Source of the DNA: Tetradesmus obliquus
Taxonomy: Eukaryota; Chlorophyta; Chlorophyceae; Sphaeropleales; Scenedesmaceae
DNA: 64,000 nucleotides
Direction: 5' to 3'
Assembly: GCA_030272155.1 (NCBI GenBank)
Contig: CP126199.1
Location: 5,010,501 to 5,074,500, forward strand
The translations under genes and the position numbers were made by a program. The notes below the pieces were generated by a model. The model was given only the letters and a program-made list of their open reading frames with translations, ran no database searches and had not been told where the DNA came from. Below are positions 4,180-64,000 of this stretch, piece by piece. Position 1 is the stretch's first letter, and each line of letters opens with the position of its first letter.

Positions 4180-6026
4180 ATGGTGACGACCAGCGACAGC
4201 AGCAGCCGCACACGTGTCCTCGTTACAGGAGGTAGCGGATACCTAGGCCAGTTCCTCATTGCAGCCCTGAAGCAATCCCACAGCATCGCCTACACCTACC
4301 TTCACAACGCAATCACAGCGCACCCAGTCAACGCAGAACCCTTCAAAGTTGACTTGGCTACTGGCGAGGGCTTGCAGGAAGCTGTCTTACAATTCAAACC
4401 GCAGGTTGTGGTCAACTGTGCGGCGCTGTCGCAGCCAGCTGCTTGTGAGCGGGACTACGAGGCTTGCAGGAAACTGAATGTGCCCAGCAAGCTGGTTGAG
4501 GCGCTGAAGCAGCTGCAGCGCAAGGCAGGCATTGATGCGCTGCTCATCCACATCTCAACAGACCAGGTGAGGCATGCAGTGGCGCTTAATCAGCGCTTGC
4601 TAGTGCAGGAGTTGCGCAACTTCAGCACAAACTGTGTTGCGATCTATCAGCTGGTGCTATCCACATCTCAGAAGAACAGGCGAGGCATAATCCTTGACAG
4701 CTGTCAGCTGCGCATGCAGATGTTCTGCACCACCTCATGCAAATATGAGCAGCTACATATCACTATCATCTGGTGCTATCCAAAAGCAACGCAACATGCA
4801 TCGGTAGCAGCGCAACATGCAGATGTTCTGATCCCTGGTCGCTCCCAAGGCCAATCACATGTGCTGATCTCAGGTGTATGATGGCAGCCGGCCTGCCTGG
4901 GCAGAGGCGGCACATAGCCTACAACCGACAAATGCCCATGCCAGCTGCACTCTGTGGTGTTTGCTACTTGCCTCAAACGTTCAAGGTTTGCATCCCCACC
5001 TCTTACAGCACCAACCTCCTGAAAGAATAAGTTCCTGTTTTGCATTCTCTCACCCAGGTGTATGATGGCAGCAGACCCGATTGGGCAGAGACCGACCCAA
5101 CACAGCCAGTCAACGCCTACGGCCGCAGCAAGCTGGAGGCAGAGCAGAACCTTGCAGCTGCATATCCACACAAGCATGTGGTGCTGCGCGCCAGCTTGAT
5201 CTACGGGCCGCAGCCGCCGCTGCAGGCTGTGGGGCGGCCACTGTTTGTGCAGTTTGTGGAGAGCCAGCTGGCGCAGGGCATAGAGACGAGCTTCTTCGTG
5301 GATGAGTTCAGGTGGGTGAGGCTACTTGTTTACACGTGTGCAGTTTGCTTTCAACTGCTGTGCTGGTGAGGGGAGAGCCAGCAGGCGCAGGGCATTGCGA
5401 CAAGCTTCTACTTTTGATGAGTTCAGGTGGGAAAGGCTGATTGTTTTACGTGTGCCCTTTGCTTTCAACTGCTGTACTGGTGCGGGGAGAACCAGCTGGC
5501 GCAAGGGATACAGACAAGCTTCTTCATAGATGAGTTCAGGTGGGTTCAGATGGGTTGGGTTGGGATGCAGGCCACACGTATGCAGACACTGCTGTGCTTT
5601 GCAAGTTGTGGAGAGCCAGCTGGCTCAGGGCATAGAGACGAGCTTCTTTGTGGATGAGTTCAGGTGGGAAAGCTGGGTGCATATATGGGGACTGCTGTGG
5701 CTTGCTTTGCCGTGTGTGCAGTTTGTGGAGAGCCAGCTGGCGCAGGGCATAGAGGCGAGCTTCTTTGTCAAAGAGTTCAGGCAGGTGATGGTGGGGTACT
5801 GCGCATGTTGATGCATGCAGATTCTGCGTCTGCTTGCTTTTCTTTTCTGTTGCGTCTATATGTTGCAGCAGCCCAAAAAGGGTGAGTAGTGCATGCCACA
5901 TATGTAGCGCAGCATGCTGTTGCTGTTTGTCTGTAGTTGCAACTGAAAACAGTGCCTGTTGCTGCAGGTCTGCTGTCTACGTGAACGACATCTGTGAAGT
6001 TGTGAAGCTTGTCATCAGCAAATACT

Positions 6027-6062
<36 letters not shown>

Positions 6063-6600
6063 GCGACACTGGTGACGCCTGTCACTTAGCTGCGCTACCG
6101 CACAGCATATACAACATGGGCGGGCCGGAGCGGCTGGGCAGACATGACATGGCAATGGCCGTAGCGCAGCACTGCGGGCACAGCAGTAAGGCAATCAAGC
6201 CTGCTAACAGTGCAGACGTGCAGCGGTGAGTGGGCTTCCAGCACACGGACAGGCTCAGCAGGTAATTGACAAACAAAATGTTATGCCTGTATCTGAGGCT
6301 GCAGGACATGGTTTACTGCTGCAGCCAGCATTTGCACATGCCCACCAGGTGCCGCTGTGTTGCAAGGGGTTGTCAAACTGTCCTGCTGCTGTCAAGCAAG
6401 CCGCCCATGCATTCAGCTGGTGCTAGGCAGCCAACTTCAGGCAAGCAAGCTGCTGCTGCTGCTGCTGCTGCTGCAGGGGCTACAGCAGTCCTGCAGACAT
6501 TTCAATGAAGATGGAGCAGCTGCTGGCTGACATGCCCAGCATTCGCCTCACGCCTTTTGCTGAGGGCTTGGCGGCAATCTTCCCCAGCAAGGCAGCGTAG
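4180..6600 (+). CDS. RmlD / MAT2B-like NAD(P)-dependent short-chain reductase
   Basis: The model has four exons, 4180-4566, 5058-5311, 5968-6225 and 6477-6600, giving 340 aa with consistent phases. The N-terminus has the Rossmann motif VTGGSGYLG (residues 15-23). STDQVYDG spans the first splice (126-133), and the catalytic-type Tyr-x3-Lys is YGRSK at 150-154. The end carries SPADISM, typical of the RmlD substrate-binding family that includes dTDP-4-dehydrorhamnose reductase and the MAT2B regulatory subunit of methionine adenosyltransferase. A short Ala run interrupts exon 3 (encoded at about 6030-6062). I chose ATG 4180 because it starts just before the Rossmann fold; the frame is open further upstream (to 4006), so a longer N-terminus is possible. 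Both larger introns contain decayed copies of exon 2 edges. The exact substrate cannot be read from sequence. Confidence 0.85.
4874..4908 (+). repeat. partial copy of reductase exon 2 start (intron 1)
   Basis: An AG|GTGTATGATGGCAGC acceptor-plus-exon fragment repeats the true exon 2 start at 5058, then drifts (frame soon lost). It lies 184 bp upstream of the intact exon, inside intron 1. It still carries an AG at the junction and could act as a cryptic acceptor. Confidence 0.8.
5372..5790 (+). repeat. ladder of four copies of reductase exon 2 end (intron 2)
   Basis: The last ~60 bp of exon 2 (coding VESQLAQGIETSFFVDEFR) plus its GTGGG donor recur at about 5372-5432, 5485-5545, 5605-5670 and 5718-5785, spaced about 115-120 bp. 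Copies 3 and 4 are closest to the original; copy 1 has an indel, and copy 4 has changed its donor region to caggcaggtgatg. All lie in the intron between exon 2 and exon 3. Confidence 0.9.
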
Positions 6601-6651
6601 CAAGACCCTGCTGCTGCAGCAAGCAAACAGGCAGCATAATGCCGTCCCCAT

Positions 6652-14150: not shown

Positions 14151-16158
14151 GCTGCTGTTGCAGCCAGGCTGCCAGTGCTGCGTCAAAGTCGTCCCCTCCC
14201 AGCTGCGCATCACCGTCAGTGCCTAGCACCTGCGGGAAATGAAACACACACACACACACACACCATGAGCAGGTCTGCTTGTTATGCACCCAAGATGATG
14301 CAATTGTAAAGGGAGAGATTCATTGTACATCATGTAAGCAGGGCTGAAGCTGACTCTGGCGCTGAAAGCCTGTATCCTACTCGTATCAAATGTTTACGAC
14401 ATGCGTGGGTGAAGTACCCCGCGTTGCATGATTGTGTGAAGCAGGCTCGAGTGAGCATGCTTCAGTCATACATGCGGCAGTTGAAACCTCAAGTGCAACT
14501 GCTATCAACATGTGCCAGCTGCACTGGTGTTGAACCTCTAGTCAAGCTTCAATAACAACTCGTCTCACCTCCATGATGCCCTCAAAGCTGTCGACAAGCA
14601 ACAGGTCAAACATGGCTCCGCCACTTGCATATCACGTTTGACTTCTGGTCAAACATTGTCATTTGCTATGTGTTACTCCCTCACCTCCATGATGCCCTCA
14701 AAGCTGTCAACAAGCGATAGGTCAAACGTGCCGCCGCCCAGGTCAAACACCAGCAGCAGCTCAGCATCCAGCGGCTTGCCGAAGCCAAAGGCCATGCCGG
14801 CAGCAACAGGCTCCTGCAGCAGAGACACCTGCGGGGGCAACACAGCGGGAACATGTATGTGTTGTAGTGCAGCTGCTGTCAGCTTGCCTGCACTGCCTGT
14901 TGGGCGATTGCGCTGCTTTCATTGCTGCCACTGTCTCCAGCACGCCTGGCTGCCAGAGTCGGCCGGCATGCTGTCCAGAGGTACCGCTGCACGCTTGCCA
15001 GCTGTAAGGCAAGTCATATGTGCGTGCGAGCTGCTGTCAGTGCTGTCTGCAGTGTACCTCACTTCTGCAGCTTGACACGCTTCTGCTGCACTGTGCAGCC
15101 CCACACACCTGCTGGATACCTGCCAGCTGCGCTGCCTGCAGCGTGGCACCTGCTGTCAGTGTGCTGCTGGCTGTTATAACAGCAGTTCCTGGCTACCTGC
15201 TATGACACACACAACACTGCTGAAGTCGCAGCCTCACACACCTGCTGGATGCCTGCCAGCTGCGCCGCCTGCAGCGTGGCGGCGCGCTGCTGCGGGCCAA
15301 AGTAAGCGGGCACCGTGATGACCACCTGCTGAGGGGGTGAGCCCCCCAGGGCCTGTGCAGCCAGCTGCAGCAGGTGGCGCAGCACATCTGCTGACACCTA
15401 TGTATGTAGTTGCAAGCAGCAACAAATGGAGTGAGGATGTGATTAGTTGTGAATAGAGTGTAGGGTTTGATGGATGTGTGCTTGGTGGGGCGCATGTGCT
15501 GTACCTTTACTTGTGCACTGCGCGGCTGACACACAAAATGCCAGCCTGCTTGCTGAGGAGTCATCACGAGCATGTGACTTCTATGAAGCTGAAGAACATA
15601 GCATCTGCTGCTGTGCTGCAGATGCTGATGCAGTGCAATCAGATCCACTGAGTGGTGCAGAGCTGCAGCAGTCACCTCTTGTGGCGTCAGCGGTGCTGCC
15701 CTTGCAGGACACAGCAGCTGCACTCCACCCTGCTCATCTGCTGCCGCACCATACACCAGCTCCAGGTCTTGAACCTCTTCGAGCTTCCTGCCTATCAACC
15801 GCTTGACGCTGTGAAACGTATTGAGGGGGTTGGCTGCTGCCTGCTGCTTGGCCAGCTGGCCCACTAAGCAGCGGCCATCAGGGCTGTAGCTAACTACTGA
15901 TGGGATAGTAAAGCTGCCAGTGCTATCACGAATGATGGTAGGGTAGGTTTCTCCCTTGCGCAGTATAGCCACAGCACTGTTGGTGGTGCCTAGGTCAATG
16001 CCGACAGCAGCTGCTGCAGCCACTGCAGCAGCAGCACAGGCCACTGAGGAACGCCTGCTGTTTGACCTGCTGCTCCTGCATGCTGCTATAACCGGTACGT
16101 TGGAGTAACAAGAGCTGATATGTGGGTGTAGGCGAGGAATCCTGCTTGAGTGAAGCAT
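13159..16158 (-). CDS. Hsp70-like protein containing only the ATPase domain, probably plastid-targeted
   Basis: Exons on the minus strand are 16158-15676, 15397-15242, 14828-14685, 14229-13583 and 13297-13159 (522 aa, phases consistent). After a Ser/Arg-rich N-terminus that resembles a transit peptide come the actin-fold motifs: [14 protein letters not shown] from residue 53, [20 protein letters not shown] at about 241, [11 protein letters not shown] near 455, and the final [17 protein letters not shown]. The protein ends about 24 residues later, so the peptide-binding domain and lid of true DnaK proteins are absent. Poly-Ser, a 13-Gln run (plus strand about 13911-13952) and another Ser run sit in loops of the ATPase domain. 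An upstream in-frame ATG at 16224 is an alternative start. Introns contain partial copies of exon 2 and exon 3 ends. Role is uncertain; short Hsp70-like ATPases exist in plants and algae. Confidence 0.88.
14560..14630 (-). repeat. copy of Hsp70-like exon 3 end (intron 3)
   Basis: The donor-containing end of exon 3 (plus-strand text 'cacctccatgatgccctcaa' at 14683) recurs about 120 bp away at 14567, with the GAG|GTGAG donor preserved, then diverges. Confidence 0.85.
15098..15155 (-). repeat. copy of Hsp70-like exon 2 end (intron 2)
   Basis: Plus-strand text 'cctgccagctgcgctgcctg' near 15119 repeats the exon 2 end ('cctgccagctgcgccgcctg' near 15251), with its GTGTG donor, about 132 bp further along intron 2. 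Confidence 0.85.
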
Positions 16159-16479: not shown

Positions 16480-18995
16480 ATGCCTGATTCGTTCATCAGG
16501 CCGCTTAGCCCTGGCTACGCGGGCAGGAGGGAAAGCTCGTACTATTTTCAGCTCGCATTGTATGCTGGAGGCAATGTCCTGGCGGTACTCATCCTGCTGC
16601 TGCTCTGGTTCTGCTGGGATGTCCTATCAGCGTTCCAGGAGCCCTTGATCTGGAGCTATCTCTGCAGGTACGCCTGCATGTCACAAGCAAGCTGCTGAAA
16701 TAAGTTAGCAAGGACGGCTTGTATTCACCTTCCTGCCTGCAGCAGGCAGCTACCTTACCATCACCGAGCAGCAGCAGTACCAGCAAAGCCAGGTCAATGC
16801 AGCATGTGCTGCAGGACTGCTCCTGCGCCAAGGCCTTGTGCCCGCTTCACGCGCGTGCCTTGCCGCTGTGTTAGACTAATGTCTTCTGTTGTTGTCCTGC
16901 AGCCTGTCATTGCGGGACATCAAGCGCTATCTGGTCAACACAGCCAGGCGCGAGCTGCAAACCAGGTGAGGCACGAGCTCAGCAGTACACACCAGCTTGA
17001 CCCACAGATGCAGCACTGCAGCATTCCTGCAAAGGCTCAACAGCAGCATTCATGCTGTAGCTGCGTTCCTATGTGCTCCACCCTTGCATCTCAAGCATGT
17101 CCAATGCGGTTCCTTGGCAAGCATGCAGACTCGACTGCAGCATCAGCTGCTACTGCTAACCACATGCGCTGCTGCGGCCCGCTGCTGCTGCTGTCCGCCC
17201 TGCGCGCAGCTCGTTTGTGGTGTGCTGTGCGAAGCTGCTGCTGCTGCCTGCCGTGATTGTGTGGCAGCTGTTTGAGGAGCTGAGGGACAAGCTGGCAGCC
17301 AAGTACCAGGAGCTGCAGCAGAAGAAGCAGGTGAGCAGATGGTGGCCCTTGCAGGAACAGAGTTGACCTAGAGTTGACCCAGATTTTAATTGTGAATTCA
17401 AGTAAGTGCCAGGGGCTCCAGCTGAAGAAGCAGGTGGGCATTGCTTGCAGGAATGCAAGGCATCACTTGCAGGTAGCATGATTCTTCAAATATACAGCTG
17501 CAGCAGAAAAAACAAATGAGCGGCACGAACAGCAGTCACTGGCGCTTGCAGGAACACCATGCAGTTACATGTATGCCTTGCATGAGATGGATGGCAGCCA
17601 AGAATCAGGAGCTGCAGCAGAAGCAGCAGGTTAGCATGGCTTGCACAATTTGGCTTGTACAAAATGGCTGCCAGCCAAGTTTCAGGAGCTGCAGCAGAAA
17701 CAGCAGGTGGGCGGCACAAAAGACAGTCAACGGCGCTTGCATGAACATTATGCACTAGCGGCAGGCAGTGCTTGCAGGAAAAGCACAATGCTTTGAATTT
17801 GCCCTCATCATAGTTGACTTGTAGCAAATTATGTGGAGCTGCAGCAGCAGAGGCAGCTGAGCAGCAGCTAGCGCTTACAGGAACAACATAAACCTGTTTA
17901 TGTTGCTGCGCGAGTATCTGCCAGCGCATCACCAAGAGGTGCAGCAGAAGTAGCAGCCAGGATGGTTGCATGAAGCACCACAACCTGTGCCTTGCAGGAA
18001 AGCAGTTGCTGATGCAGGCTGATGCCCAAAAGTGCCTTTCTGTTGTTGATTCTGTTGTGCATGTTTGTTTCGCCGCAGGCCACTCCCCAGAAGGCACTTC
18101 CAGCAGCAGCTGCAGCAGCAGCTAGGCGCATCAGCAAGGAGTTTGCAGCAGCAGCAACGGCAGCAGGCGACAGCATAGCCAAGCAAGCTGACAGCAGCGA
18201 CGACAGCTCAGACAGTGAGGACGAGCAACAGCAGCAGCAGCAGCAGAGCGGCAAGAGTAGCAGTGATAATGCATCCAATGGAGGGCTGCATCAGCACCAC
18301 AGCCAGCAGCAGGGGCTCAGGCAGCAGCAGCAACTCTGGCAGCGGAAGCCTGCAGCAGCTGCACCTGCTTCTGCAGCAGCTGCGGCAGCTCAGCAGCAGC
18401 AGCAGCGTCAGCGACCTCCTCTAGGCCCTCGCAGTAAGTCGCTGGGTCTCAGCCAAAGCAGCAGCAGCAGCAGCGGCGGCAACAGCACAGCCCCTGCAGC
18501 TGCTGCAAGTGCCAAAGCAGCTGCGCCACCACAGCGGGCTGCAGCAGCTGCAGCAGCAGCCAGGGCTGCCGGCAAGAGAGCAGCAGCAGCTCCGAGCGCC
18601 AGCAGGAGCAAATGGCGGCGGCGGCTGCGGCGGTGGAGGCACATGGCCGTGCGGCAGCTGCGGTGGTACTGCTTCTGTCTGTTTGAGCTGTTCAAGTTCC
18701 TGCTCAGCTTGCTGCTGCCTCGCAGGCAGCCTCAGCAGCAGCCCCAGCAGCAGCAGCAGCAGCAGCAGCAGAGCCTGGCGCAGTTGCAGCACTGCGCAAG
18801 CACCGCCAGCAGCAGGGCAGGCAGGGCAAGCAGTGTGTACGCTGGGGTGCATTCAGGTGCAGGTGCATTTGATGCTGCTGGCAGCACTCCTATGCGGCCA
18901 AGCCTTGCAGGAAGTATTGGCAGCAGCTACTGCGCATCAGAGCATGGCATGCACGCGCCGTGGACGCCGCAGCAGCAGCAGCACCAGCAGCAGCT

Positions 18996-21603: not shown

Positions 21604-24600
21604 GATGATAGCAGTGAAGGCATTAGTGAAAGTGGCACCATTGACAACAGCAGCAGCAGTGAGCAGGCGCTTGCGCAGCAGCTGCTGGAGGTTCAAGAGA
21701 AGGTGGCTGGGCTCCAGGAGCAGCTGCATGGTGAGCCTGCTGCATAGCCACGTGAATGCATGGCTGCCTTCCTAGCTGTGTTTGTTCTGATCATGCGGCA
21801 TTGCATGCTGTTGTGCAGGACTCGCTCACCCTGCCAGTGCCTGCATAGTATATGGCAATCGCAGAAGATGCAGGTGGCAAGGCTGTGGTGTGCTTGCTGT
21901 GGCTCTGCCTACCTGCCTTCTCAAACTTCACTGCTTACTTCCACCATGAAACCCAGCACTGCGCATACTGTCTGTTGCTGTATGGCAACATGGGCTGCTG
22001 CTGCAGGTGTTGAGTCAGCACATTAGGCAGCCAGCGAAGCACTGCAGCTGGCGCAGCTGCGATTCAAGCCAGCACTGCATGCTGTTGCACATAAAACCTC
22101 TTCTCCCAACCCCCTCTCTCCACGTGTTATCCTTCTCTGTGTCGACCTCTCTCAGGTTTGCAGGGTTGTGCTCTGCATACTGCGGCTGTGCCAGCTCCAT
22201 CAAACAACCTCCTTCCACCTTGCAACCTAGCACCAATTGTGAATCACGCGTTTGTTTGATCGGCCTGGTTCCTGCTGCAGGTGTTGAGTCAGCACACGAG
22301 GCTGCAAGCGAAGCATTGCAGCTAGCGCAGCTGCGCCTCACCAACTGCCAGCCGCAGGGGTCAGCAGCAGCAGATGCAGGCAGCCACCACGGCCGCAGCT
22401 TAGGCAGATTCCTCAGTGGCTCCTGGTTTGTGCCAGGCAGTGCATCAGGCGCTGCAGCAGGAGCAGCAGCAGCAGCAGCTGGTGATGGCAGCAGCAGCAG
22501 CAGCAGTGCGGCAGCTGAGCCAGTGCGGCAGCTGAGCCAGATGCAGCAGGTGAGCCATTGCATTGGGCATGTAAGAAGAGGGCTGCGGGCGCTTGTGAGG
22601 CTGGATGTTGCTGCTGCCAGTGATGAGGCAGCAGCAGTGCTGAAGCACTTTGTGCCAGGGCAGGAAGAGGAACAGCAGCAGCAGCAGCAGCAGGAGGAGG
22701 AGGACAGCTGCGGCAAGCCAGCAGCACCAGAGCTGGCGGCAGCAGCAGCAGCAACAATGGACTCAGGCGTTTGCATTGATGACGGCAGCAGCAGCTGCCA
22801 GCAGAGCAGCGTCATTCCTCTGCTGCCGCAAGCTGCTGACTCAGCACAGCAGTGCTTCCACAACACCAGCAGCAACAGCAGCAGCAGCATGCACAAACGA
22901 GGCTCCTTCAAACAGGGCTCTGCTGCGCTGGCAGCCGCCCAACCACCCACCACCACCAGCAGCATCAGCATCATGCGCGTGGCGCGCGGCGTCGCCTACC
23001 CGTTAATAACATCGTTACGGCGGCTGAGCAGTGTGTTTGTATCCGGGCTGGGCAGCACGACAGCAGTAGCGCTGGGCACTGGGCTGGGCGTGCTGCGGCT
23101 GGGGCTGGGCGTGGTGAAGTTCCTGGTGCAGCTGGGAGTGTTTGCATCTGGTGAGCATCCAGTGTTACTATCTTTATTGATATTTTTCATTATCCCTATT
23201 ACACTAATGCCTATTATCATCGGTTTCTTCGTGCTGTGGCTGGGGCTGGGCGTGGTCAAGTTCCTGGTGCAGCTTGGCGTGTTTGCCTCGGGTGAGCAAA
23301 TTAGGTTGCCTGTGTCTGTCTGTATGGTAGCAGCTATGAGCGTTTTGACCTTAGGTTCACACATTGATGGCTATTTGGCATGCGTTGTGTTTGCTTTCTT
23401 TGCCTGGGTCCCGCAGCCAGCAGCATAATTGGCAAAGTACTGGTTCAGAGGAAATTCGGGTGCTTGCTTACTTTTTTGAGTTCTAACAATCCATGCGACC
23501 TGCACTGACACTGGACCACCTGCACTTGCTGCTGCTGCTGCTGCTGCTGTGCCAGTGCTGTACACGCTGCTGGCGCTGGACATTGACCCAGTGGAGCGGC
23601 TGCTGCAGCTGCTGCCCATGTCAGAGGTGCGCGAGCTGCTGTAGCTGCGGCTGCAGCACTTATAGCGTGCATCAAGCAGCACCCTAGTAGCATGGCTTTA
23701 CAGGTTGTGTGGTAGGTACACATGAGTGCTGCCAGTTCATCAACGCTACACCGGCTGCATTTCACGTGTCTGAACGAGCGACTGCACGTGCTGCTGTGCC
23801 CTGAGTGCAATCAAATGTGTACTGCTGTGTGCTGCGCTGCTGCACCCATCCCCGTACAGGCCAGCCAGGACCGTGCCAGCCGCGCAGTCACGCACGCCAT
23901 GCGCGGCGTATTCGTGTCATCCCTCAAGCTCTCAGCCTATTGTGTGCTGCGTTGCTGCACGCCTCCCCCCTGCAGGCCAGCCAGGACCGCGCCAGCCGTG
24001 CAGTCACCCGCGCAATGCGCGGCGTCTTCGTGTCATCCCTGAAGCTCTCAGCCTTCCATGCAGGCTTCACCTGGCTCACGCTGCGCGCTTTCGACGCGCA
24101 TTTTGTGTGCCTGGCGACAGCTGCATCTGCTGTCGTGGCTGTGCTGCCGCTGGTGCCTGTTGCACTTGTGGCGGCGCCTGCGGTGCTGGAGCTGGCGCTG
24201 CTAAGGGGGGCGCCGGTGAAAGCGCTGGTGCTTGCGGCGCTGCATTTGGGGGCGTACTATTTTGGAGATGACCTCATCTTCAGAGAGGTGAGACAGACTG
24301 TCTTCGAGTTGCTGCAAAACTGCTGCTGATATCAGTGTTGGGCTTATGATTGCGGATTGTTGCATGCTGGTTGTTGACGGCGCTGGTGCTTGCGGCGCTG
24401 CATTGGGGGGCGTGTTTTGGAGATGACCTCAATATTTTGGAGATGACCTCATTTTCAGAGAGGTGAGAAAGAGGAAAGGCGTGGCTGCACTGGGGCATGC
24501 GTGCAGCTGTGTCTGAGTTGCTGTGGCTGCTGGTATCATTGGTGTTGGGCTTGAGATGGCGGACTATTTGCATGCTGGGGGGGGTGGGGGGTGGAAGGCG

Positions 24601-44300: not shown

Positions 44301-44822
44301 CCATAAACGCCTTAAAAGGCTAATATATAACAGCTGAGCTTGTGTGCCTTGGTCCTTTGATATGCAGGCTTTGGCGCGTCGCAGCACCTGCCGCGGCGCC
44401 AGCTGCTGGACCGCTTCGAGTCCCACACCAAGCATTGCCCCTCATGCACCAAAGCCCTAAACAGCTTCCAAACCCTGCAGCGCATTGCTGCACAGGCGAG
44501 CACAGTGCTGGCAGCAGCAGCGCTGGGGGTTGCTGTCATGCAGGCATGCCAGGCAGTAAGCGCGAGTGCATTCAGTGTAAGCGCTGCGAACGCGGCCGAT
44601 GCAGCCGCGAGTCAGCAGCTGCAGGGTGCAAGCGGTGCGCTGGTGGCACTTGCAGCTGGGGTGAGTGTGTGGGCGGGTGCAGCGAATGGGCTGGGGGTGG
44701 GAGTGGTGGTGCTGCTGGCGCTGGCTGCTGCTGCTGCTGGTGGCGTGGCGGGCTGGGCGGGCCGTATGGCTGACCGATTTGTGTTTGTGGATTATGATGA
44801 GCACCACACCTCCAAGAACTAA
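36157..44822 (+). CDS. PAO-like Rieske non-heme iron oxygenase (PAO/PTC52/TIC55 family), chloroplast
   Basis: Eleven exons: 36157-36545, 37561-37665, 38281-38372, 38613-38820, 39210-39284, 39802-39848, 40107-40221, 40744-40882, 41413-41576, 42333-42472, 44368-44822 (642 aa). A Ser/Thr/Ala-rich transit-type N-terminus precedes [19 protein letters not shown], the family start of the Rieske domain. The [2Fe-2S] ligands are Cys171-Pro-His173 and Cys192-x2-His195. The mononuclear-iron site is in [15 protein letters not shown] (Asp-x2-His-x4-His), closest to pheophorbide a oxygenase. The C-terminus has the family CxxC (CPSC, 515-518) and two hydrophobic segments for thylakoid or envelope anchoring. 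Known members open the pheophorbide macrocycle in chlorophyll breakdown or act on related pigments; the exact substrate is inferred only. Nearly every intron carries duplicate exon edges, and intron 10 carries a small inserted element. Confidence 0.9.
36600..36660 (+). repeat. copy of PAO-like exon 1 end
   Basis: The exon 1 terminus with donor ('aacaagcagtggtgagccaa' at 36533) recurs at about 36643, about 110 bp downstream, with one changed base in the exon part (gactgg to gacagg). Confidence 0.9.
36950..37610 (+). repeat. six-rung ladder of PAO-like exon 2 start
   Basis: The acceptor and exon start coding [14 protein letters not shown] recur at about 36951, 37081, 37208, 37327, 37441 and 37561, spaced about 114-130 bp, each preceded by a plausible acceptor (cag or tag). 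Linkers share 'ctgaccacaccacctgtgcg'. Rungs 4-6 are nearly identical. Only the last one runs on to the Rieske-domain continuation and a donor. Confidence 0.92.
37745..37955 (+). repeat. two copies of PAO-like exon 2 end
   Basis: The exon 2 end ('ctggtgctgtggagggacgc' at 37631) recurs at about 37750 and, more diverged, at about 37913. Each is followed by a GTGxG donor-like site. Confidence 0.88.
38163..38210 (+). repeat. copy of PAO-like exon 3 start
   Basis: 'cccctgcagg' plus the exon start coding the first Rieske Cys-Pro-His occurs at about 38160-38206 and again at 38272-38318. Only the second continues through to the second Cys/His pair. Confidence 0.9.
40452..40660 (+). repeat. two copies of PAO-like exon 8 start
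   Basis: The segment coding [19 protein letters not shown] appears at about 40453 (drifted), 40589 (close) and 40744 (used). Confidence 0.88.
41150..41350 (+). repeat. two copies of PAO-like exon 9 start between CTG tracts
   Basis: The segment coding [18 protein letters not shown] occurs at about 41153, 41276 and 41413 (used). Each is preceded by a long (CTG)n run ending in CCAG and followed by 'ggtttgctgctgctagctga' in the two intronic copies. Confidence 0.92.
41880..42185 (+). repeat. two copies of PAO-like exon 10 start
   Basis: The segment coding [17 protein letters not shown]...DQG occurs at about 41886, 42114 and 42333 (used), with spacing of about 220 bp, larger than in other ladders. 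Confidence 0.9.
42575..42715 (+). repeat. two copies of PAO-like exon 10 end
   Basis: The exon 10 terminus coding VANILDPT with its AG|GTGCGTG donor recurs at about 42580-42608 and 42683-42711. Confidence 0.88.
42949..44324. mobile_element. small repeat-flanked element in PAO-like intron 10 (TRIM- or pseudo-LTR-like)
   Basis: A 190-bp segment at 43065-43254 (from taattcgactgactggctgc to cttaaaaggctaat) recurs in direct orientation at 44154-44324. The second copy lacks exactly 19 bp that form half of a perfect 16-bp palindrome (gcccttgtacaagggc, 43140-43155). A further 27-bp repeat (tatgttgcgtcgccttggca...) precedes the first copy at about 42951 and follows it at about 43253. The interior (about 900 bp) has no long recognisable protein but holds a perfect palindrome cgcctaggcctaggcg at 43978-43993. 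The sequence lacks CTG repeats, unlike its host intron. It fits a non-autonomous terminal-repeat element; I cannot identify a primer-binding site or target duplication. Confidence 0.55.
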
Positions 44823-51491: not shown

Positions 51492-53914
51492 AGGTATGTT
51501 GTCGTGGAGGGTGACGGCACCGTGGCTGCCAGCTGGCAGCGGGGCGCCAACAACGTGCTGGCGCTGCAGCTGAATGACGAGGAGGTGGAGGTGTACGACA
51601 ACTGGTGAGCGCTGGCGACGGCAGCAGACGTAAAAAGACACATATGTACAAGATGTGTCAGCAGAGGCAGGGGTGGGGGTGATGAGATGGAGGTGTACCG
51701 ACAACTGGTGAGCTGGTGAGCTTTTGCTGCTGATGGACCACATTTTTGCACGCGGCTGCAGCCGTGCAGTTGTTTTGTCAGCAGCAGAAGAGAAGCATGC
51801 CAGAGACGCCCGTCATCTTCATCGCCACCCCCTGCTACGGCTGCATCCTGACCTACCGACAACTGGTGAGCGCCGGCAGCAGGAGCAGCAGATGTGTCAG
51901 CAGCAGCAGATGTGTTGGCTGCTGCAGCAGGGGCAGCAGCAGCAGCAGCAAGATTGAGCAGCATCGCCAACAGTTGCTACTGCAGCTAGCAGCTGGTACT
52001 GCAGCGGCTGAGACAAAGCAGGCAGCAGTCCGGTCGCTGTTCATAACACGCAATATGTGCATGTGCTTGCAGGAAGAACACCCCGGGCGCGCTGGTGCTT
52101 GTGGACGGCCAGGAGATCACGCGCGAGCGCAAGCTGCTGGCGTGGGCCTCCGACATGAGCCTGCAGCGCAGCGAGCTGCGGCGCACGCGCATGGAGCTGG
52201 CGCAGGCGCGCGAGGAGATCCGCGTGCTGCGCGCGGAGCTCAGCGTGCTGCGCATGGAGGTGCGGCGATTGCTTATACGTGCATTATATGTGCATTATGA
52301 TGTGAGAGTTAAGGTTATGCGTGCAAGGTTGTGTGCTGCGCACGGAGCTCAGCGTGCTGCGCATGGAGGTGCGTCGGTGCTTGTCATTACACGTTGAATT
52401 GGGGGTTGCAGTACCTGAGGTGTTGCCTGCATTGGTAGTGTTGACATATGTATGTTGTGCGCGCAGAGCTCGCCGTGCTGCGCATGGAGGTGCGTCAAAT
52501 AAGGCCTTGCCTGGTCATGTGCCCTGACAGTTGCAAGTGCTGCTCGCTGGTGTTCCAATTGGTGTTGGCGCGTGCCGCATGCTCAGCTGCTATCTCCTTC
52601 AGTTCATCGCCTGTCGATGCAGAAGGCTGACAATCCTCGCCAACTGACTCCTGTTCTCTCCCTCACGTGCAGGTCTCCGAGGCCAACATCGCGCGCGCTG
52701 CTACATGCTGAGGCACAGCTGTGTCCTCTCCTGTGTCTCATCCGTGTTCTCAGATTCTCAGACACACAGCACTGACCACAGCACTGACCTCGCCAACAAA
52801 CCTCATTGCTGCCTGCAGGTCTCCGAGGCCAACATTGCGTGCGCTGCTGCTGAGGCGGGCTAGCTGACAATCACCTCGTGTATCTCACTGTGTTGTTGTC
52901 TGCTGCTGCTGCTGCTGCTGCTGCTCTTGCCCTGCAGGTCTCCGAGGCCAACATCGCGCGTGCTGCTGCTGAGGCTCGCCAGCTGGAGCTGGAGCGCAAG
53001 AACAGCGCGCTGCGGCTGGAGATCGCTGCCAGCAACGCCAGCGCGCGCAGCACCATGGAGGAGGCGGCGCGGCTGCTGAGTGAGTGACAGTTGCTACGTT
53101 TGATGCGTTTGATGTGAGAATGTAGACGTACATTGACTGCTGTTGTGCGGCTGGAGGTCGCGGCCGCAAGCCAGCGCACGCAGCACCATGGAGGAGGCGG
53201 CGCGGCTGCTGAATGCGTGGCGGTGGTTCGACTGTGCTGTGATTGCGTGTATTCGCTGTGTTTGGTGGTGGTAATCGTCACAGCAAGAGTGAGCACGCAC
53301 CACAGCATAGATTTGCTGGGCAGTATCTACGAAAGCCCTGGCGAGTGCATGCAATTCACAGCGGTCGCAACTAACGCTTGTCTGTTTGTTTGTGCTGTTC
53401 TGCTGTGTCAACAGACGACATGTCAGACGACGACAGCGGCATGAACGGCGGCATGGGCATGAGCAGCAGCAGCGGCATGAGCGACGCAGGCAGCGGCGTT
53501 TCCTCAACCTATGCCTCAGCCAACGCGCCCGCAGGCGCCGGCAGCAGCAGCAGCGGCAGCCATGGCAGCGGTGGCGGCATGTTTGGCAGCTTGTTCGGCT
53601 TCAACATGCCTGGCGGCAATGGCAAGGTGCAGAGCAGAGCAGCACCGGATGCTGAGCAGCGGCCCAGCAACGCTGCGTCAGCAGTTGTCGCTGCTGCAGC
53701 TGCCATGGCAGCTGCGGCTGATCCCTGGAGGCAAGGCCAGCAGCAGCAGCCTCAGCAGCAGCCGCAGCCGCAGCCGCCGCAGCAAGATGGCGGCGCTGGT
53801 TTAGCGGGTGCGGCTGGGACGTACAGCCCGCAGAGCAGCAACGGCACCCGCAGCTACACCCCTAACACCACACCTGGCAGCAGCGAAGTGGTGTCTGCCA
53901 ACAGCAGCTCGTGA
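50219..53914 (+). CDS. CBM20 starch-binding protein with coiled coil, probably chloroplast / pyrenoid-starch associated
   Basis: Seven exons, 50219-50360, 50544-50843, 51206-51305, 51494-51604, 52073-52259, 52938-53079 and 53415-53914, give 493 aa. The N-terminus looks like a chloroplast transit peptide. Residues about 122-218 form a CBM20 domain: VRFWLKFHVDYGQSIRIIGG, then GAWNLAKAPFLRWSEGDLW with starch-contacting Trp residues, then EYKYVVVEGDG and ASWQRGANN. Exons 5-6 encode a charged, heptad-like coiled coil of about 110 residues (ERKLLAWASDMSLQRSELRR ... RQLELERKNSALRLEIAAS). The C-terminal third is Ser/Gly/Gln/Ala-rich and disordered. CBM20 plus coiled coil is the architecture of the Chlamydomonas SAGA proteins, which link pyrenoid starch sheath and Rubisco; I see no clear Rubisco-binding (D/N)W(R/K) motif, so the parallel is architectural only. 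Confidence 0.9.
51685..51885 (+). repeat. copies of CBM20-gene exon 4 end
   Basis: The exon 4 end with donor ('acaactggtgagc') recurs at about 51690-51716 and about 51855-51876, after the true end at 51604. Confidence 0.8.
52330..52500 (+). repeat. two copies of CBM20-gene exon 5 end
   Basis: The coiled-coil segment coding ELSVLRMEV with its GAG|GTGCG donor recurs at about 52338-52378 and 52458-52497, about 120 bp apart. Confidence 0.9.
52668..52865 (+). repeat. two copies of CBM20-gene exon 6 start
   Basis: The acceptor plus 'gtctccgaggccaacat' occurs at 52674, 52819 and 52938 (used). The first two copies drift out of frame or hit a stop within about 45 bp. Confidence 0.92.
53143..53215 (+). 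repeat. copy of CBM20-gene exon 6 end
   Basis: 'agcaccatggaggaggcggc' and flanking sequence at about 53183 repeats the exon 6 end (about 53049), but the donor base context has changed (ctgagtgag to ctgaatgcg). Confidence 0.9.
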
Positions 53915-56900: not shown

Positions 56901-58239
56901 GGCGGCTCATCAGATGGCGACTGCGCTCCAGAAATGATAACCCAGCCGCGACGGCAGACACAATTGTTGTGCTATTTAAGCAGAATGGTTCCCTCACATC
57001 CACACACACGCCTGCATGAACTGACCAAAATGTGAGCACTATAGACGAGTGCTTGTTGCACTGTAAGGCTGAGCCGACACAGCAGCACCCACAAAATGCG
57101 TCAACACCTCGCACACTAGGCGATGACTCACTCGCAGTACAGACTTCAACCTCCACATGTGGCTGAGCGCCAAATGACAGCGGCCTAGAGCAGCCATCGC
57201 CACTAGCATGCATTCATCTGCAAGCATGCCTATACACGTCAGGATGCATTGTCTTCAAAAAGCAATGTAGGGTCTGCAAGCAACGGGTTCATACTGCACA
57301 TACGGCGCAAGTGCCAGCATCCGCTTGCAGGACAACACCCTGCAGACAAACCTCAACTGCTGCTCGCCTGCGAAAAACACCTGATTCTGTGAGCCACCAC
57401 GGCTGCCATTGTCCGCACACAAGCGCTCAGCAGCAGCTGGCAAGGCTTGCTGCATCACTCGCGGCAAATAAAACAGCAGCGTCATACGGCCACAGGCCAC
57501 TCCAACATTTTTTCAAACACCTAAACCAAAACCTCGAACACAGTAATGTACAAGCTGCATGGCCAGTTGTTCTGCACATGCTGCTGGCCAGGCAACCCAT
57601 GCAAAAGCAGCGACGCCCAAGGCCCTATTGTCGACAATTCAAAAACACCCTCCAACAGCAGTGCCACGTCATGCGGTGCAGCACACAACAGCCCTTTCTG
57701 GTGCAGCATCACCGCACAGTGGCAGCACGTCATGTAACACCCGACCCCTCCCACTGTTGGTACACAGACATAACTCGTGACCTGCACCTCATCTAAAAAA
57801 AACCGTACAGCTCGTGCTAAGCCTTTTTGCTGCTGAGGTACCTGCTCAACCGTTCATCATGCACTGCTGCACTGCAGCAAAGGCAGCAGCTGCGGTCAAC
57901 CGCACTCCTCTTCCCTCCCTCCCACCAAAACAATGCGCATCCCTCTGCGCTGTCCCACCCTTAGCTTGACAGCTGATCAGCTCTTCACAAACCGGCTGTG
58001 TACCACGCCTACAGAAGCACAACCAACATGTGCAGCACAGCCGTGATCATGCAAGCATCAGCGCACGTGGTGGTGTGCATCGTACAACATTGTACCGTGC
58101 ATGCACACGCGCCATGAACCTGCCGACACTGCACTGCCAACGCAGGTTGTTGACATAGAACTTGGTTGTCATGCTGTCTGGCGTTGACCAGCAGACCAGA
58201 CCACACACGCCACTGCTTCAGAGGCGCTCAGCGCATCTC
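53915..58239. other. long stretch without a supported gene
   Basis: It contains a two-unit repeat of about 70 bp at 54150-54290, a short CTG run at 54768-54791, and a 17-bp near-palindrome (ctagtaac-g-gttactag) at 55461-55477. Frames at about 55728-56202 and 56171-56368 (plus) and 57255-57500 and 58009-58206 (minus) are not low-complexity throughout, but I cannot place them in any family. Part of the right half may be introns and 3' exons of the minus-strand gene whose exon lies at 58950-59240. Confidence 0.35.
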
Positions 58240-58985
58240 ACAACCACTCAGCACCACGGCAGCGTGCAGCTGCTGTTAGCGGGTGGTGGCCCTGCAGCCA
58301 CCTGAACTTACCCCCAACACCCGGCCACTGACTGCAGGAACTGGCCAGCTGCGCATCTCACAACCACTCAGCACCAGGGCAGCGCGCACCTGCTGTCAGC
58401 GGGCAGTGGCCCCGCAGCCACCTGCACTTCACCCCCAACACCCCGCCGCAAAGTCAAGCCTGACTGCACATATCTCTATTTGCTGCACCACTCAGCACCA
58501 GGGCAGCGTGCACCTGCTGTCAGCCAGTGGTGGCCCCGCAGCCACCTGAACTCACTTTGCCAGCCAGCTGCAAAATCAAGCGTGAGTGCAGACCTTACTG
58601 CACCACTCAGCACCAGGGCAGCGTGCACCTGCTGTCAGCCGGTGGTGGCCCCGCAGCCACCTGAACTCACTTTGCCAGCCAGCTGCAAAATCAAGCGTGA
58701 GTGCAGACTTTACTGCAGCACTCAGCAGAAAAGGCAGCGTGCACCTGCTGTCAGCTGGTGGCGGCCCAGCAGCCAGCAGGATCGCCAGCAGCACCCACTC
58801 CTACAATTAAGCCTGACTGCATATATTCTGTTTGCTGCAGCACTCTGCACCAGGGCAGCGTGCACCTGCTGCCAGCCGGTGCCGGCCCGGCAGCCGCCTG
58901 CACTCACCCCCCTACGATCAAGCCTGACTGTACATCTTGCTGCACAGTTCAGCACCAGGGCAGCGTGCACCTGCTGTCAGCCGGT
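58240..58985 (-). repeat. seven-rung ladder derived from the end of a minus-strand exon
   Basis: Units of about 105-125 bp contain 'ggcagcgtgcacctgctgtc' (plus strand), with copies near 58260, 58380, 58507, 58618, 58733, 58856 and 58961. On the minus strand each unit reads as the end of an exon, CCACCGGCTGACAGCAG, followed by a GTGCAC donor. The rightmost unit is continuous with the exon at 58950-59240, so the array lies in its downstream intron. Confidence 0.85.
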
Positions 58986-59191
58986 GGCGGCCCCGCAGCC
59001 AGCAGGATCGCCAGCAGCACCAGCACTGCAGCAGCCAGCCCCACCCCCTGGAAGGGTGCCGAGCTCCACGCATTCAGCAGCCATGCCTCCTCCCGCTTAA
59101 TTGCATCGCGCGTCATTTTGGCGGCGGGGTCAAACGGCACGGAGCGGCGGCTGCTGCTGCTGCTGCTGGTGCGCACGTTGGAGCGGAAGCC

Positions 59192-60369: not shown

Positions 60370-62357
60370 ATGACCATAACTGTGGTTGAGACGTATGAGG
60401 AGGACTCACACATCGCAGTAGCTAGGCACATCGCTTCGCTGCTGGATGAGGGGCAGGTAGGCGCTCAGCTAGGCCGTAGCGCTGCGTTTACTGTCATAAG
60501 AGATTTTAATACTTTGTCTATATTTACATATCGCCGATCACGCTTATGTGGGGTCACTTTGCTGAGCCTGGCGCGCTGCTTTTGGTTGGATGTGCCTGCC
60601 GGCGAGCCTGTTCTTGAGCCTTTCAGCAGCTGCATAGCTGCCAGCAGGAGAAAGCAGCTGCAGTACGTTCAGGAAGATTGAACATGGCAGCATGTGGCTG
60701 TGCTGCAGCCCTGGCAACGACAGGAGCCTCCAGCAACGAGCTGCTGCTGCTGTGTGTTCTGTACTGCCCGCTGCGCTGCGCAGGCCAAGACAGCACTCGC
60801 AGACACGCCAGGCTCGCTGTTCCTGCAAGAGGCAGCAAAGCTTGCTGCTGATGGCCGTTATGACGAGCTTGTCAAGAAGCTGTCAGCACACCTGGACCTG
60901 GTGTTTGCAAAGTGCAGTGACAAAGGTGAGGCGCTGGCTGGCTTTTTATTTTCCATATGCTGCAGCTGCATCCAAAGCCACGCACAGCAGCAGCATCGGC
61001 AGCTGCAGCAGCTACAGCCGTTGTCAAGTACAGTAGCCACTGCAGCCGTTGTCGTAAGGCAGAGGCAAAGAAGCTGTGCAGCAGCAGCAGCAGCAGCAGC
61101 ATGCTATGGTGGTGCAGCAGCTGTTGTCTCGGTATGGTGCAGCTGCAGCATGAATGGGGCTGTTGTCAGTCACTAACACAGCGAGTTGCCTAAAGTAACG
61201 TTTAACAACACACCCAGTGCTGGCTCCAAGAGTATTGGCGGTTCCGCAACACGTACCCGCCCAGGTGTAAAAAAGCGGGCAGCACCAGCGCTTGACAGGG
61301 TCCAGACATGTGCAGCCGCGTGCAACTGCGTGCAATATGGCACCATGTGCGAAGCCTGGCAACGAGTGTGCGCTGCAGCAGGCGACAGCTAAGGATAGCT
61401 TCAGCAAGCGTGCACCAAGCAGCCGTGGCAACAGCGCATTGTGTATGGCACCACACACACACATTGCCGTTGACAGCAACATGCGAATCAGGCAGCACGC
61501 ACAAGAACACCGTGTATATGTTGCGGAGGATGAATCCTGCTGCTGCTGCTGCCGCAGAGGCGGAGTGCATTGTGTCGGTGATCTCTCTGCTGGTGGCGCG
61601 CCTGGACAAGGACAGCCACCTCACGGAGCTGGCCCGCAAGCTGGCGCTGGACATCAGCAAGCAGGTGTGGTGTTATGGTTTTGCAAATATATTAGCATGC
61701 ACCTCTGTGCCTGTGCATGCTAGCAACAGCATCAGCACATGTAGCACCTACATTACAGAGCTGGCCCGCAAGCTGGCGCTGGACATCAGCAAGCAGGTGT
61801 GGTTTGATGGCTTTGCAAACAATTCAGCATGCTAGCAGCAGTAACAGCACATGTAGCAGCGTATTCACTGAGCATGCCCGCAAGCTGGCGCTGGACATCA
61901 GCAAGCAGGTGTGATGTTATGGTTCTGCAAACAGTTTGCATGCTAGCAGCAGCAGCAGCAGCACATGCAGCACATGTAGCAGCCGCCTCACGCAGCTGAC
62001 CCGCAGGCTAGCCCTGGACATCAGCAAGCAGGTACGATGTTATGGTTTTGCCAACAGTTTGGCATGCTAGCAGCAGCAGCAGCAGCACATGTAGCAGCCA
62101 CCTCACGGAGTCGGCCCGCAAGCTGGCACTGGACATTAGCAAGCAGGTGTGTCTGCTGTAGCTTTGCAAACCGTTGGTCATGCTAGCAGCGGCAGCAGCA
62201 CATGTAGCAGCCGCCTCACGCAGCCGACCCGCAGGCTAGCCCTGGACATCAGCAAGCAAGTGCTGTTGTTGTCCACTCGTGTGCTCAAACTTCCAGCACC
62301 ATAATGCTTATGGCGCCTGCCTGTGCATACATTGCTCTTATGCCGTACCTGCTGCCA

Positions 62358-62393
<36 letters not shown>

Positions 62394-64000
62394 CAGCCTG
62401 AGGTGGCGGGTGAGGCGAAGCTCAACGGGCTGCTGGCGCTGTACAGCAGCTGCTCCACAGCGCCTGCGCGCTACATGGTGCTGCTGCAGACGCTGGAGTT
62501 TGCGAAGCAGAGCAAGCAGCTGGCTGCGCTGCTGGTGCCTGTTGTGAGGGTGAGCGGATAGCTGCTGGGCGCTTGGGGGTGGGGTGAAAGATGGAGCCAC
62601 TTTGGTTGCCTGTTGTGAGGCTGGGTGGTGAGGCCAAGCAGCTGGCTGCACTGCCGGTGTCTGTTGTGAGGGTGAGCGGAAAGCTGCTGGGCGCTTGGGG
62701 GTGGGGTGAAAGATGGAGCCACTTTGGTTGCCTGCTGTGAGGGTGGGTGGTGAGGCCAAGCAGCTGGCTGCACTGCCGGTGCCTGTTGTGAGGGTGAGCG
62801 GGGAGCGGGGAGTCAAGCTGCTGGGCATGTTTTTGTTTTGGGTGGAAGAGCAGGTCACATTGGTTGTTGTTTTGCAGCTAGGTAGCAGCTGGATACAGAG
62901 CATTGAAAGGGTTGCATGTGCTTGGTAGACGCAGCAGTATGGAGTTGGGGAGTGGCTGTGTGGGTGGCTACGCAGCAGGAAGTGTGACCGTTGTTGGCCG
63001 ATGAAGATTCAAACAAACACTATCCTTATCTACATTGTTTGATGTCCAGTGATAATCCGTGACTTCCGAGGCCTCTGGGGTGCTTGAGTGTGTTTGAGCA
63101 GGCAGCATGCCCGCGGCTCTGCTGTTACTTTATGTGTTACTATATGTCTGTAGTCTTCACAGGAAGCTGCCGGACGGCAGTCCAAAGGTGCAGCAGCAGT
63201 GCACAGTTGAACCATGCCTGCTTTGTCCTCCTGCAAGCTGGTGTGCGATCTTCCTGCAAGCTGATGTGTGCTCTTCCTGCAAGCTGATGTGTGATGTTTC
63301 TGCAAGCTTATGTGTGATCGTCTTGCAAGCCGATGTGTGATCGTCCTGCAAGCTGATGTGTGATCTTCCTGCAAGCTGGTGCGATCTTCCTCCTTCAAGA
63401 AGGGTTTGTCGCTTTGAGCCAGCAACTGCGGCATGCACACCATACATTGTACACCATACATTGTAAGGCACAACAAAACATGCAGTGTTGGAACCTTCTC
63501 CGGCTTGTCTTAGGGCTATAGTGTCATGACTCCGCATGCCCCTGCTGCTGCCGCTGCTGCTGCTGCTGCTGCTGCAGGGCAAGGCCGAGGAGTGGCGTCG
63601 CACCTGGGGCCTCAAGCCCAGCATGGCCATTGAGCTGTACCTGCAGCTGGCAGCACTCATGAAGGTGGGGCGGTTTAGGGTTTTTAGGGTTTGAACAAGG
63701 GTTTAGGAGGGTTTTGGAACCTAGGGTTTGGGGTTTTGTGTGTGGCTTATGTGTTAGGATGAGATTGCTGCTGGATGTTTATGTGTACGGTAGTGCACCA
63801 TTGCATGCTGTGGTGTACTGATTGAGAGGTTGCATTGTGCACTGCTGTTGTGAGCTGATGACATGTGTGTGCAGCAGTGGAGGGCAGTCGGTGCTGGTGT
63901 GGAGTGGCCAGTGATGATCAAACACACGTAAAAAACCTTATCTACATTGTTTGACACCCAATGATATCCAGTGATCCCTGAGGCCAACCATGCATGCACA
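60370..64000 (+). CDS. translation initiation factor eIF3 subunit m, 5' part (continues beyond window)
   Basis: Five exons are visible: 60370-60456, 60784-60925, 61558-61664, 62397-62549 and 63578-63664, with the gene running off the right end. The protein starts MTITVVETYEEDSHIAVARH. It continues with LFLQEAAKLAADGRYDELVK, EAECIVSVISLLVARLDKDS, LTELARKLALDISKQ|PEVAG, KLNGLLALYSSCSTAPARYM, VLLQTLEFAKQSKQLAALLV and KAEEWRRTWGLKPSMAIELY. This order matches the helical-repeat part of eIF3m that precedes the PCI/winged-helix domain (compare the plant pattern LxxLFNLYNLL...ARFQVYMKALELA...EWNI). eIF3m is a core subunit of the eIF3 octamer that binds the 40S subunit. Exons carry no low-complexity insert, unlike most genes here. 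The introns hold long ladders and telomere-like repeats. Confidence 0.87.
61755..62268 (+). repeat. five extra copies of eIF3m exon 3 end
   Basis: The exon 3 end ('aagctggcgctggacatcag' at 61637) with its AAGCAG|GT donor recurs at about 61770, 61882, 61997, 62118 and 62231, spaced about 112-121 bp. Linkers share 'gcatgctagcagcag' and 'cacatgtagcagc'. Copies are 80-95% alike by eye. Confidence 0.93.
62560..62815 (+). repeat. ladder of eIF3m exon 4 end
   Basis: The exon 4 end (coding SKQLAALLVPVVR with AGG|GTGAGCGG donor) recurs near 62630-62680 and 62755-62800, about 126 bp apart. Linkers share 'gggcgcttgggggtggggtg' and a mini-copy of 'gttgcctgttgtgag'. Confidence 0.9.
63670..63740 (+). repeat. 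telomere-like TTTAGGG stretch inside eIF3m intron
   Basis: Within 80 bp after the exon 5 donor there are six or seven imperfect TTTAGGG / TTTTTAGGG / GGGTTT motifs. Confidence 0.8.

What the first reader, a model, noticed from the sequence alone, without database searches (positions are those of the whole stretch)
4874..62815. Exon-edge ladders: introns carry tandem, decayed copies of neighbouring exon ends with their splice sites
Seen directly in eight of nine multi-exon loci here (reductase, Hsp70-like, TMEM245-like, PTB, PAO-like, SLC10A7-like, CBM20, eIF3m) and at the unidentified minus-strand exon. Copies are 30-80 bp of coding sequence plus the adjoining donor or acceptor, usually spaced 100-135 bp, number one to six extra, and decay with distance. 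They are almost confined to introns and occur on both strands. This is too regular and too general to be independent accidents. Inference: a local, ongoing tandem-duplication process that starts at or tolerates exon-intron junctions, expanding introns and supplying spare splice sites. I know of intron gain by tandem duplication as a proposed mechanism, but not of a genome described as built this way.
Basis: partly seen in the sequence, partly recalled or inferred. Interest (0 to 1): 0.92.

Follow-up and report, generated by a model that had tools for sequence, protein, structure and literature searches.

The report
Exon-edge copies that lengthen introns
In this green alga, introns are lengthened by repeated short copies of the ends of neighbouring exons together with their splice sites, a pattern found in several unrelated genes and chromosomes and not fully explained by ordinary tandem repeats.

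Summary
The genome (104.7 Mb, 17 contigs) is Tetradesmus obliquus or very close to it (98% protein match). In two modelled genes 14 of 26 splice junctions have copies of their exon edge in the adjoining intron (26 copies; 0 of 120 foreign-intron comparisons). Elsewhere 28 of 219 junctions have a direct copy, 0 of 219 an inverted one.

Copies share an anatomy. In high-identity pairs the block is about 54 bp of exon plus 6-12 bp of intron, ending at the splice site (24 of 26 pairs that share a strong site). Blocks recur at 95 bp or more (0 of 164 offsets below 80). Spacers are often unrelated; eight tested matched only themselves. Each copy adds 112 +- 13 bp of intron (12 introns). Intron-resident copies look near-neutral.

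Junction-crossing duplication that expands introns is supported; spare sites as a function, steady decay with distance and intron gain are not. Mechanism open: block duplication with a new spacer fits best, plain tandem duplication is the main rival and fits about half of the copies.

The parts
4057..6602 (+). Reductase (RmlD-like) gene; exons 4057-4566, 5058-5311, 5968-6225, 6477-6602
   Evidence: Clean open frame; 98% to a predicted T. obliquus RmlD-like protein
4655..4686 (+). Weak copy of the exon 1 donor edge in intron 1 (score 20, identity 0.84)
4871..4954 (+). Copy of the exon 2 start in intron 1
5381..5786 (+). Four copies of the exon 2 end with donor in intron 2 (starts 5381, 5495, 5619, 5736; identity 0.84, 0.88, 0.96, 0.86); the last has lost its GT
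14564..14622 (-). Copy of an Hsp70-like exon end with donor (real edge 14680-14738), 90% over 59 bp
17291..17956 (+). Repeats with donor at the right end in the 17-24 kb gene region (gene not identified here)
23089..23298 (+). Block pair 91% identical, offset 141, donor at right end
29238..29603 (+). Three copies of the start of the PHO4 exon 29604-29838 (starts 29238, 29360, 29482), spaced 122 bp
29839..30082 (+). PHO4-gene intron whose 3' end repeats the upstream exon end (GTGTTTGGCTACCTGCAG then GT): candidate AG|GT-type intron gain, offset 244
   Evidence: read by eye; weak HSP 29821-30111
36157..44821 (+). PAO-like Rieske gene, 11 exons
36616..36660 (+). Copy of PAO exon 1 end with donor
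36945..37485 (+). Five copies of the PAO exon 2 start with acceptor (exon starts 36951, 37082, 37208, 37327, 37441; real 37561)
37747..37956 (+). Two copies of the PAO exon 2 end with donor
38156..38205 (+). Copy of the PAO exon 3 start with acceptor (96% over 50 bp)
39447..39488 (+). Weak copy of PAO exon 5 end (score 20)
40290..40337 (+). Copy of PAO exon 7 end
40450..40661 (+). Two copies of the PAO exon 8 start with acceptor
41148..41320 (+). Two copies of the PAO exon 9 start with acceptor, with CTG tracts in the unit
41663..41710 (+). Copy of PAO exon 9 end
41882..42160 (+). Two copies of the PAO exon 10 start with acceptor
42574..42711 (+). Two copies of the PAO exon 10 end with donor
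51579..52985 (+). Donor-type (51579, 52228) and acceptor-type (52669, 52815) blocks in an unidentified gene
58203..59034 (-). About 114-bp repeats with acceptor-like sites on the minus strand (reader: CBM20 gene)
61588..62270 (+). Exon end with donor and its downstream copies (reader: eIF3m gene)
62513..62883 (+). Second array in the same gene region, whole-unit similarity 85%, period 122; not flagged for a splice site

Best explanation
Introns of this alga keep gaining insertions of about 112 bp beside their splice sites. A typical young insertion carries a directly repeated block, about 54 bp of the exon edge plus the splice site and only about 6-12 bp of intron, and a spacer of about 40-100 bp that is unrelated to the matching flank and, where tested, single-copy. 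I read this as local block duplication with a newly made or captured spacer, as in fill-in repair of staggered breaks or back-and-forth template switching, with one breakpoint at or just past the splice site. Shown: location, direction, anatomy of the high-identity pairs, added length, near-neutral look of the copies. Some arrays arise or grow by whole-unit tandem duplication (PTB, PAO exon 2, 62.5 kb). Inferred: the repair or template-switch step. Why the breakpoint sits at the splice site is not known: either the process is tied to exons or splicing complexes, or breaks arise mostly in exons and only those that keep the splice site survive. The copies are by-products that lengthen introns, not functional exons.
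For: High-identity blocks in the sampled stretches: intron side median 6.5 bp (IQR 5-12), exon side 53.5 bp (IQR 45-67); 24 of 26 blocks sharing a strong site have it within 20 bp of the correct end, where about 0.33 would be expected for junction-independent breakpoints. Sense donor at right end 27 of 97 HSPs against 8 (left end), 6 (middle) and 0 antisense; acceptor at left end 25 of 97 against 5 (right end), 9 (middle) and 5 antisense. Flank similarity of 73 block pairs, of which 70 fall in the printed identity bins: intron-side median z 0.0, 0.2 and 0.4, z above 3 in about 2 of 70, including 1 of the 10 pairs at >=92% (mi51, z 3.2). Eight spacers gave 8 matches in the genome, each its own place. 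Direct 28, inverted 0 of 219. Intron length = 296 + 112 (+-13, standard error) x copies, r 0.94, 12 introns, the 1,895-bp last PAO intron left out. Sampled introns with local repeats are longer: 8 with, median 440 bp; 51 without, 233 bp; p 0.0008. Copied acceptor blocks outside HMM exons are coding-like (0.51 bits per codon, n 27), acceptor-like sites elsewhere are not (0.01, n 710). Changes unique to a copy fall 20/14/30 on codon positions 1/2/3, those unique to the exon 5/0/17 (no formal test). A relative's read-through protein (P0014) puts about 366 nt where the reductase intron here has 656, with no copy in that frame.
Against: Whole-unit arrays are plain tandem duplications (PAO copies 37441/37561: exon 44/45, intron 58/58). 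Among 27 intron-side copies at HMM junctions with exon identity of 0.7 or more, 15 keep 0.5 or more identity over the first 40 bp of intron (7 of 15 donors, 8 of 12 acceptors; random pairs 0.27 +- 0.18). The flank test starts where BLAST stopped, which favours unlike flanks; an unmasked version that failed after 8 pairs had z above 3 in 3 of them, all with CAG tracts. Repeat cover is flat across junctions. For donors, copied blocks are no more coding-like than other donor-like sites (0.39, n 37, against 0.33, n 218). Antisense acceptor-like sites at the right end number 16 of 97, perhaps because CTGCAG is a palindrome. The motif test inside coding sequence had no power (donors 8 of 114 against 1 of 22; acceptors 3 of 103 against 1 of 140). 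10 of 36 high-identity pairs share no strong site, 6 of them from one kinesin stretch (mi14), some with a weak acceptor at the end. Pairs within one array are not independent. Exon calls, splice model and thresholds are mine. No RNA data.
Confidence: 0.5

Rival explanations
1. Plain ~115-bp tandem duplications that happen to cross junctions. Exon parts stay similar because the exon is under selection (and perhaps converts its copies), while the intron half of each unit decays.
For: Whole-unit arrays exist with the same period; 15 of 27 exon-edge copies at HMM junctions keep intron-side identity of 0.5 or more; 112 bp per copy equals the period.
Against: At 92-98% block identity neutral decay predicts an alignable spacer; median z is 0.0 in 10 such pairs. 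Copies are themselves near-neutral. P0004, from an unnamed source and 99% identical over its match, reads through reductase intron 1 with few amino-acid changes, so that intron is not hypervariable (by eye). It also predicts pure intronic and intergenic duplications at like density, which I could not measure well.
Confidence: 0.32
2. Functional alternative or mutually exclusive exons kept by selection.
For: Copies often keep consensus splice sites; unpolarised mismatches between exon and copy are third-position rich.
Against: Polarised changes in copies are 20/14/30 by codon position; only 2 of 97 HSPs carry a donor and an acceptor at the two fitting ends; 11 of 32 offsets are multiples of 3, as chance gives (counted).
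Confidence: 0.05
3. Mobile intron elements (introners) or other transposons.
For: Introns lengthened in pieces of fixed size.
Against: Eight tested spacers matched only their own places (that search skips very common words and scores only the best candidates); blocks are copies of the local exon, different in every gene.
Confidence: 0.03
4. Exon-biased breaks with selection: blocks ending inside exons are lethal, so survivors are those whose outer break lies just past the splice site.
For: Observed intron-side lengths pile up at about the minimum needed for a working site (the minimum is recalled knowledge).
Against: Needs a process that spares introns sharply at the splice site; not otherwise shown.
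Confidence: 0.1

Closest known systems
Potato RdRp intron gain by tandem duplication crossing an exon-intron boundary (Ma, Lan and Niu 2016, PMC4974935; first of five parts of the text read)
   Same: Duplicated segment crosses a junction and carries splice signals
   Different: One gene, a new intron arose; here many genes, existing introns are lengthened, many blocks end at the splice site with unrelated spacers
Intron gain by tandem duplication of an exonic AGGT (Rogers 1989; Hellsten et al. 2011; as cited in PMC4974935)
   Same: Local direct duplication involving AG|GT
   Different: Signature found in 0 of 59 sampled introns; one candidate in the window
Tandem duplications from repair of adjacent nicks or breaks in plants, sometimes with filler (recalled from memory, no paper read)
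   Same: Direct repeat of tens of bp with possible filler, local
   Different: No link to splice sites is known to me
Introners (recalled; search listing only)
   Same: Insertion-driven intron change in algae and fungi
   Different: No repeated family seen

Membership tests
AGGT tandem-duplication intron gain | Donor region and acceptor region of the same intron are direct repeats | tested here: not met
   0 of 59 introns above the 99.5% null in either form of the test; PTB intron 29839-30082 is a single candidate
Boundary-crossing tandem duplication | Repeated segment spans a splice junction | tested here: met
   11 of 20 PAO and 3 of 6 reductase junctions; 28 of 219 elsewhere
Boundary-crossing tandem duplication | Whole unit, intron part included, repeated head to tail | tested here: inconclusive
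   True for PTB and PAO exon 2 arrays and partly for 15 of 27 copies; not for most high-identity block pairs (9 of 10 at >=92% have z of 3 or less)
Boundary-crossing tandem duplication | Creates a new intron or new splice usage | not testable with these tools
   No RNA-seq
Introner | Dispersed multi-copy insertion family | tested here: not met
   Eight spacers, eight matches, each at its own place
Mutually exclusive or tandem exons | Copy has acceptor and donor | tested here: not met
   2 of 97 HSPs
Mutually exclusive or tandem exons | Coding selection on the copy | tested here: not met
   Copy-unique changes 20/14/30 by codon position, 43 copies of identity 0.75 or more

The most novel reading that the evidence does not exclude
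A splicing-linked mutational process. Something that recognises exon edges, such as pre-mRNA-templated repair or a splicing-complex-bound template, pastes splice-site-anchored ~60-bp exon-edge blocks with ~55-bp new spacers into the adjoining intron, and this is a main cause of the unusually long introns of this genome.
Probability: 0.27. Interest if true: 0.93.

Novelty: new variant of a known kind. Interest (0 to 1): 0.8.

Why it matters
How introns grow is poorly known, and for most recent intron gains the source sequence could not be identified (PMC4974935). Here copy number accounts for most of the length of 12 introns in two genes. T. obliquus has the longest mean intron (462 bp) of the five algae in a published table (PMC5966456, passages seen). 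The sample rate of 28 of 219 junctions, carried over to the 12,496 genes and 7.8 introns per gene of that table, would mean some 25,000 copy-bearing junctions (extrapolation from four gene families). That makes the process directly testable by comparing strains. It also poses a splicing question: how the right site is chosen among near-identical ones about 120 bp apart.

Tried and rejected
Considered and dropped: telomere-derived filler (TTTAGGG-type heptamers rank 13th of 20 families of the same composition); copying from spliced mRNA (2 weak of 72 exon-exon probes, both chance on inspection); AGGT intron gain; introners; inverted copies (0 of 219); structured RNA or tRNA in the window (none at gathering thresholds). 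Pfam scans of three frames each of five 9.9-kb strand blocks found only PHO4, HSP70 and a weak TFIIA. Searches with two ORFs that run through ladders gave one short relative without a ladder (P0121) and nothing. The motif test inside coding sequence was underpowered. Literature: searches (held open-access library only; listings, plus passages of PMC5966456 and the first part of PMC4974935) showed no report of such exon-edge copies; subscription journals are not covered.

Rows left out: 145 HMM segments were typed by hand out of 249 rows; the others lie outside the fetched loci or looked like ladder copies that I did not want counted as exons. 140 of the 145 fell inside the stretches; 22 of these hold in-frame stops, were kept for splice-site inference and left out of the codon counts.
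Full report
What was given. The finding says that introns in the window carry tandem, decayed copies of neighbouring exon ends with their splice sites. I checked it in the window, then in other genes of the same genome.

The genome. The window is C9:5010501-5074500 of an assembly of 104,662,953 bases in 17 contigs. The spliced reductase from the window matches a predicted T. obliquus RmlD-like protein at 98%. A published table gives T. obliquus UTEX393 an assembly of 108 Mb, 57% GC and a mean intron of 462 bp, the longest of its five algae (PMC5966456, passages).

The window. Repeats of period about 101-132 bp are found by TRF and self-BLAST. The PAO-like gene can be spliced into an 11-exon, 642-aa frame with GT-AG at all ten introns and hits Rieske strongly and PaO below its cut-off. 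Probing every junction of this gene and of the reductase against its own intron gives copies at 11 of 20 and 3 of 6 junctions, 20 and 6 copies, with 0 of 120 in foreign introns. The introns of these two genes that lack copies are 240, 258, 389 and 251 bp long. Leaving out the 1,895-bp last PAO intron, length follows 296 + 112 x copies (r 0.94, 12 introns). So each event adds a whole period, spacer included.

Elsewhere. Pfam searches of the genome return exons independently of any repeat, and their hit lists already show ladders. The same profile stretch recurs beside a full exon in kinesin (C2:7430665-7431399), chaperonin (C16:4172823-4173294), Hsp70 (C17:238408-238865) and tRNA-synt_1 (C13:3960174-3960690) genes. 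I merged 87 fetched loci into 53 stretches (206 kb) and inferred splice sites with a self-trained matrix (donor CAG|GTGAG, acceptor CTGCAG|G). 17 of 116 donors and 13 of 103 acceptors have a local copy at the 99% null point; exon middles 1 of 66; intron probes 100-165 bp from the junction 31 of 199. The last figure is no clean control, because such probes can hit the copies themselves. At a fixed score of 25 the count is 28 of 219 direct and 0 of 219 inverted. Of 32 listed copies 29 lie on the intron side, two of which are not exon copies (exon identity below 0.3).

Where the repeats end. This is the most informative result. In 97 simple HSPs a donor shared by both copies sits within 20 bp of the right end in 27, against 8 at the left end, 6 in the middle and 0 on the antisense strand. 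A shared acceptor sits at the left end in 25, against 5 at the right end, 9 in the middle and 5 antisense. Antisense acceptor-like sites at the right end are frequent (16), perhaps because CTGCAG reads the same on both strands. Among 36 pairs with at least 88% identity whose homology covers at most 80% of the offset, 24 have the site within 20 bp of the correct end, 2 elsewhere and 10 share no strong site. In the 24, the intron side is 6.5 bp (IQR 5-12) and the exon side 53.5 bp (IQR 45-67). Beyond the blocks there is little homology: intron-side median z is 0.0, 0.2 and 0.4 in the three identity bins, with about 2 of 70 pairs above 3. That test starts where BLAST stopped, which favours unlike flanks, and an unmasked run that failed after 8 pairs had 3 above 3, all with CAG tracts. 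Copied acceptor blocks outside the HMM exons are coding-like, unlike other acceptor-like sites; for donors the two classes hardly differ. A motif test inside coding sequence had no power. A gene fetched afterwards, with ladders predicted by its hit list, has similar blocks, for example 45 bp at 96% with an acceptor 4 bp from its end, and also larger repeats without splice sites, for example 481 bp at 94%.

Results that pull the other way. Base-level cover by repeats is flat across junctions. Several arrays repeat the whole unit. Of 27 exon-edge copies at HMM junctions, 15 keep 0.5 or more identity over the first 40 bp of intron (7 of 15 donors, 8 of 12 acceptors; random 0.27 +- 0.18). I had first written that donor copies mostly do not; on recounting I lowered the block model from 0.55 to 0.5 and the novel reading from 0.3 to 0.27, and raised plain tandem duplication from 0.27 to 0.32. 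Identity falls with distance in only 3 of 7 multi-copy ladders in the two modelled genes. The kinesin array mi14 has only a weak acceptor.

Are the copies functional? When copies are compared with each other and the exon, changes unique to a copy fall 20/14/30 on codon positions 1/2/3 and changes unique to the exon 5/0/17. The copies therefore seem to decay with little coding constraint, though I made no formal test. Only 2 of 97 HSPs carry sites at both ends. The predicted T. obliquus protein follows the real edges. A relative's read-through ORF suggests a 366-nt intron in place of the 656-bp ladder intron here, without a copy in that frame. This points to lineage-specific growth, but rests on one predicted protein.

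Source of the spacers. Eight spacers searched as one joined query matched only their own places; that search skips very common words and scores only the best candidates. No repeated element was seen. Telomere-like motifs are not enriched.

Mechanism. Plain tandem duplication explains the direct orientation, the period, the whole-unit arrays and about half of the copies. It does not explain why many young blocks (92-98% identical) have unrelated spacers and stop at the splice site. Block duplication with a new spacer explains those, and leaves open what sets the breakpoint. I give plain tandem duplication 0.32, the block model 0.5, and to a splicing-linked version of it 0.27 as the most novel reading.

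Novelty. Single boundary-crossing duplications and AGGT intron gain are known (PMC4974935, first part read). A genome in which exon-edge blocks of constant anatomy lengthen introns in many genes was not found in the searches, which cover open-access papers only.

Noticed in passing
window 43065-43254 and 44154-44324: A 190-bp repeat at 89% identity, 1,089 bp apart, inside the long last PAO intron, with a 37-bp repeat near by (42945/43251); looks like a separate dispersed or mobile element.
   Followed up: no
window 29839-30082: PHO4-gene intron whose end repeats the upstream exon end followed by GT: possible intron gain by AG|GT duplication, at 244 bp (twice 122).
   Followed up: partly
window, many places (for example 30521-30579, 31962-32015, 40888-40966): Frequent CTG/CAG trinucleotide tracts, several of them in introns beside exon ends.
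   Followed up: no
window 63229-63391 and 45099-45203: Minisatellites of 23 and 26 bp outside the exon-edge pattern.
   Followed up: no
   Followed up: no
window 28597-28615 and 29550-29562: Short TTTAGG/CCTAAA runs in PHO4-gene introns.
   Followed up: yes
L088 3047-3910: A 481-bp direct repeat at 94% identity (offset 385) in the tRNA-synt_1 gene stretch, without splice sites at its ends.
   Followed up: no
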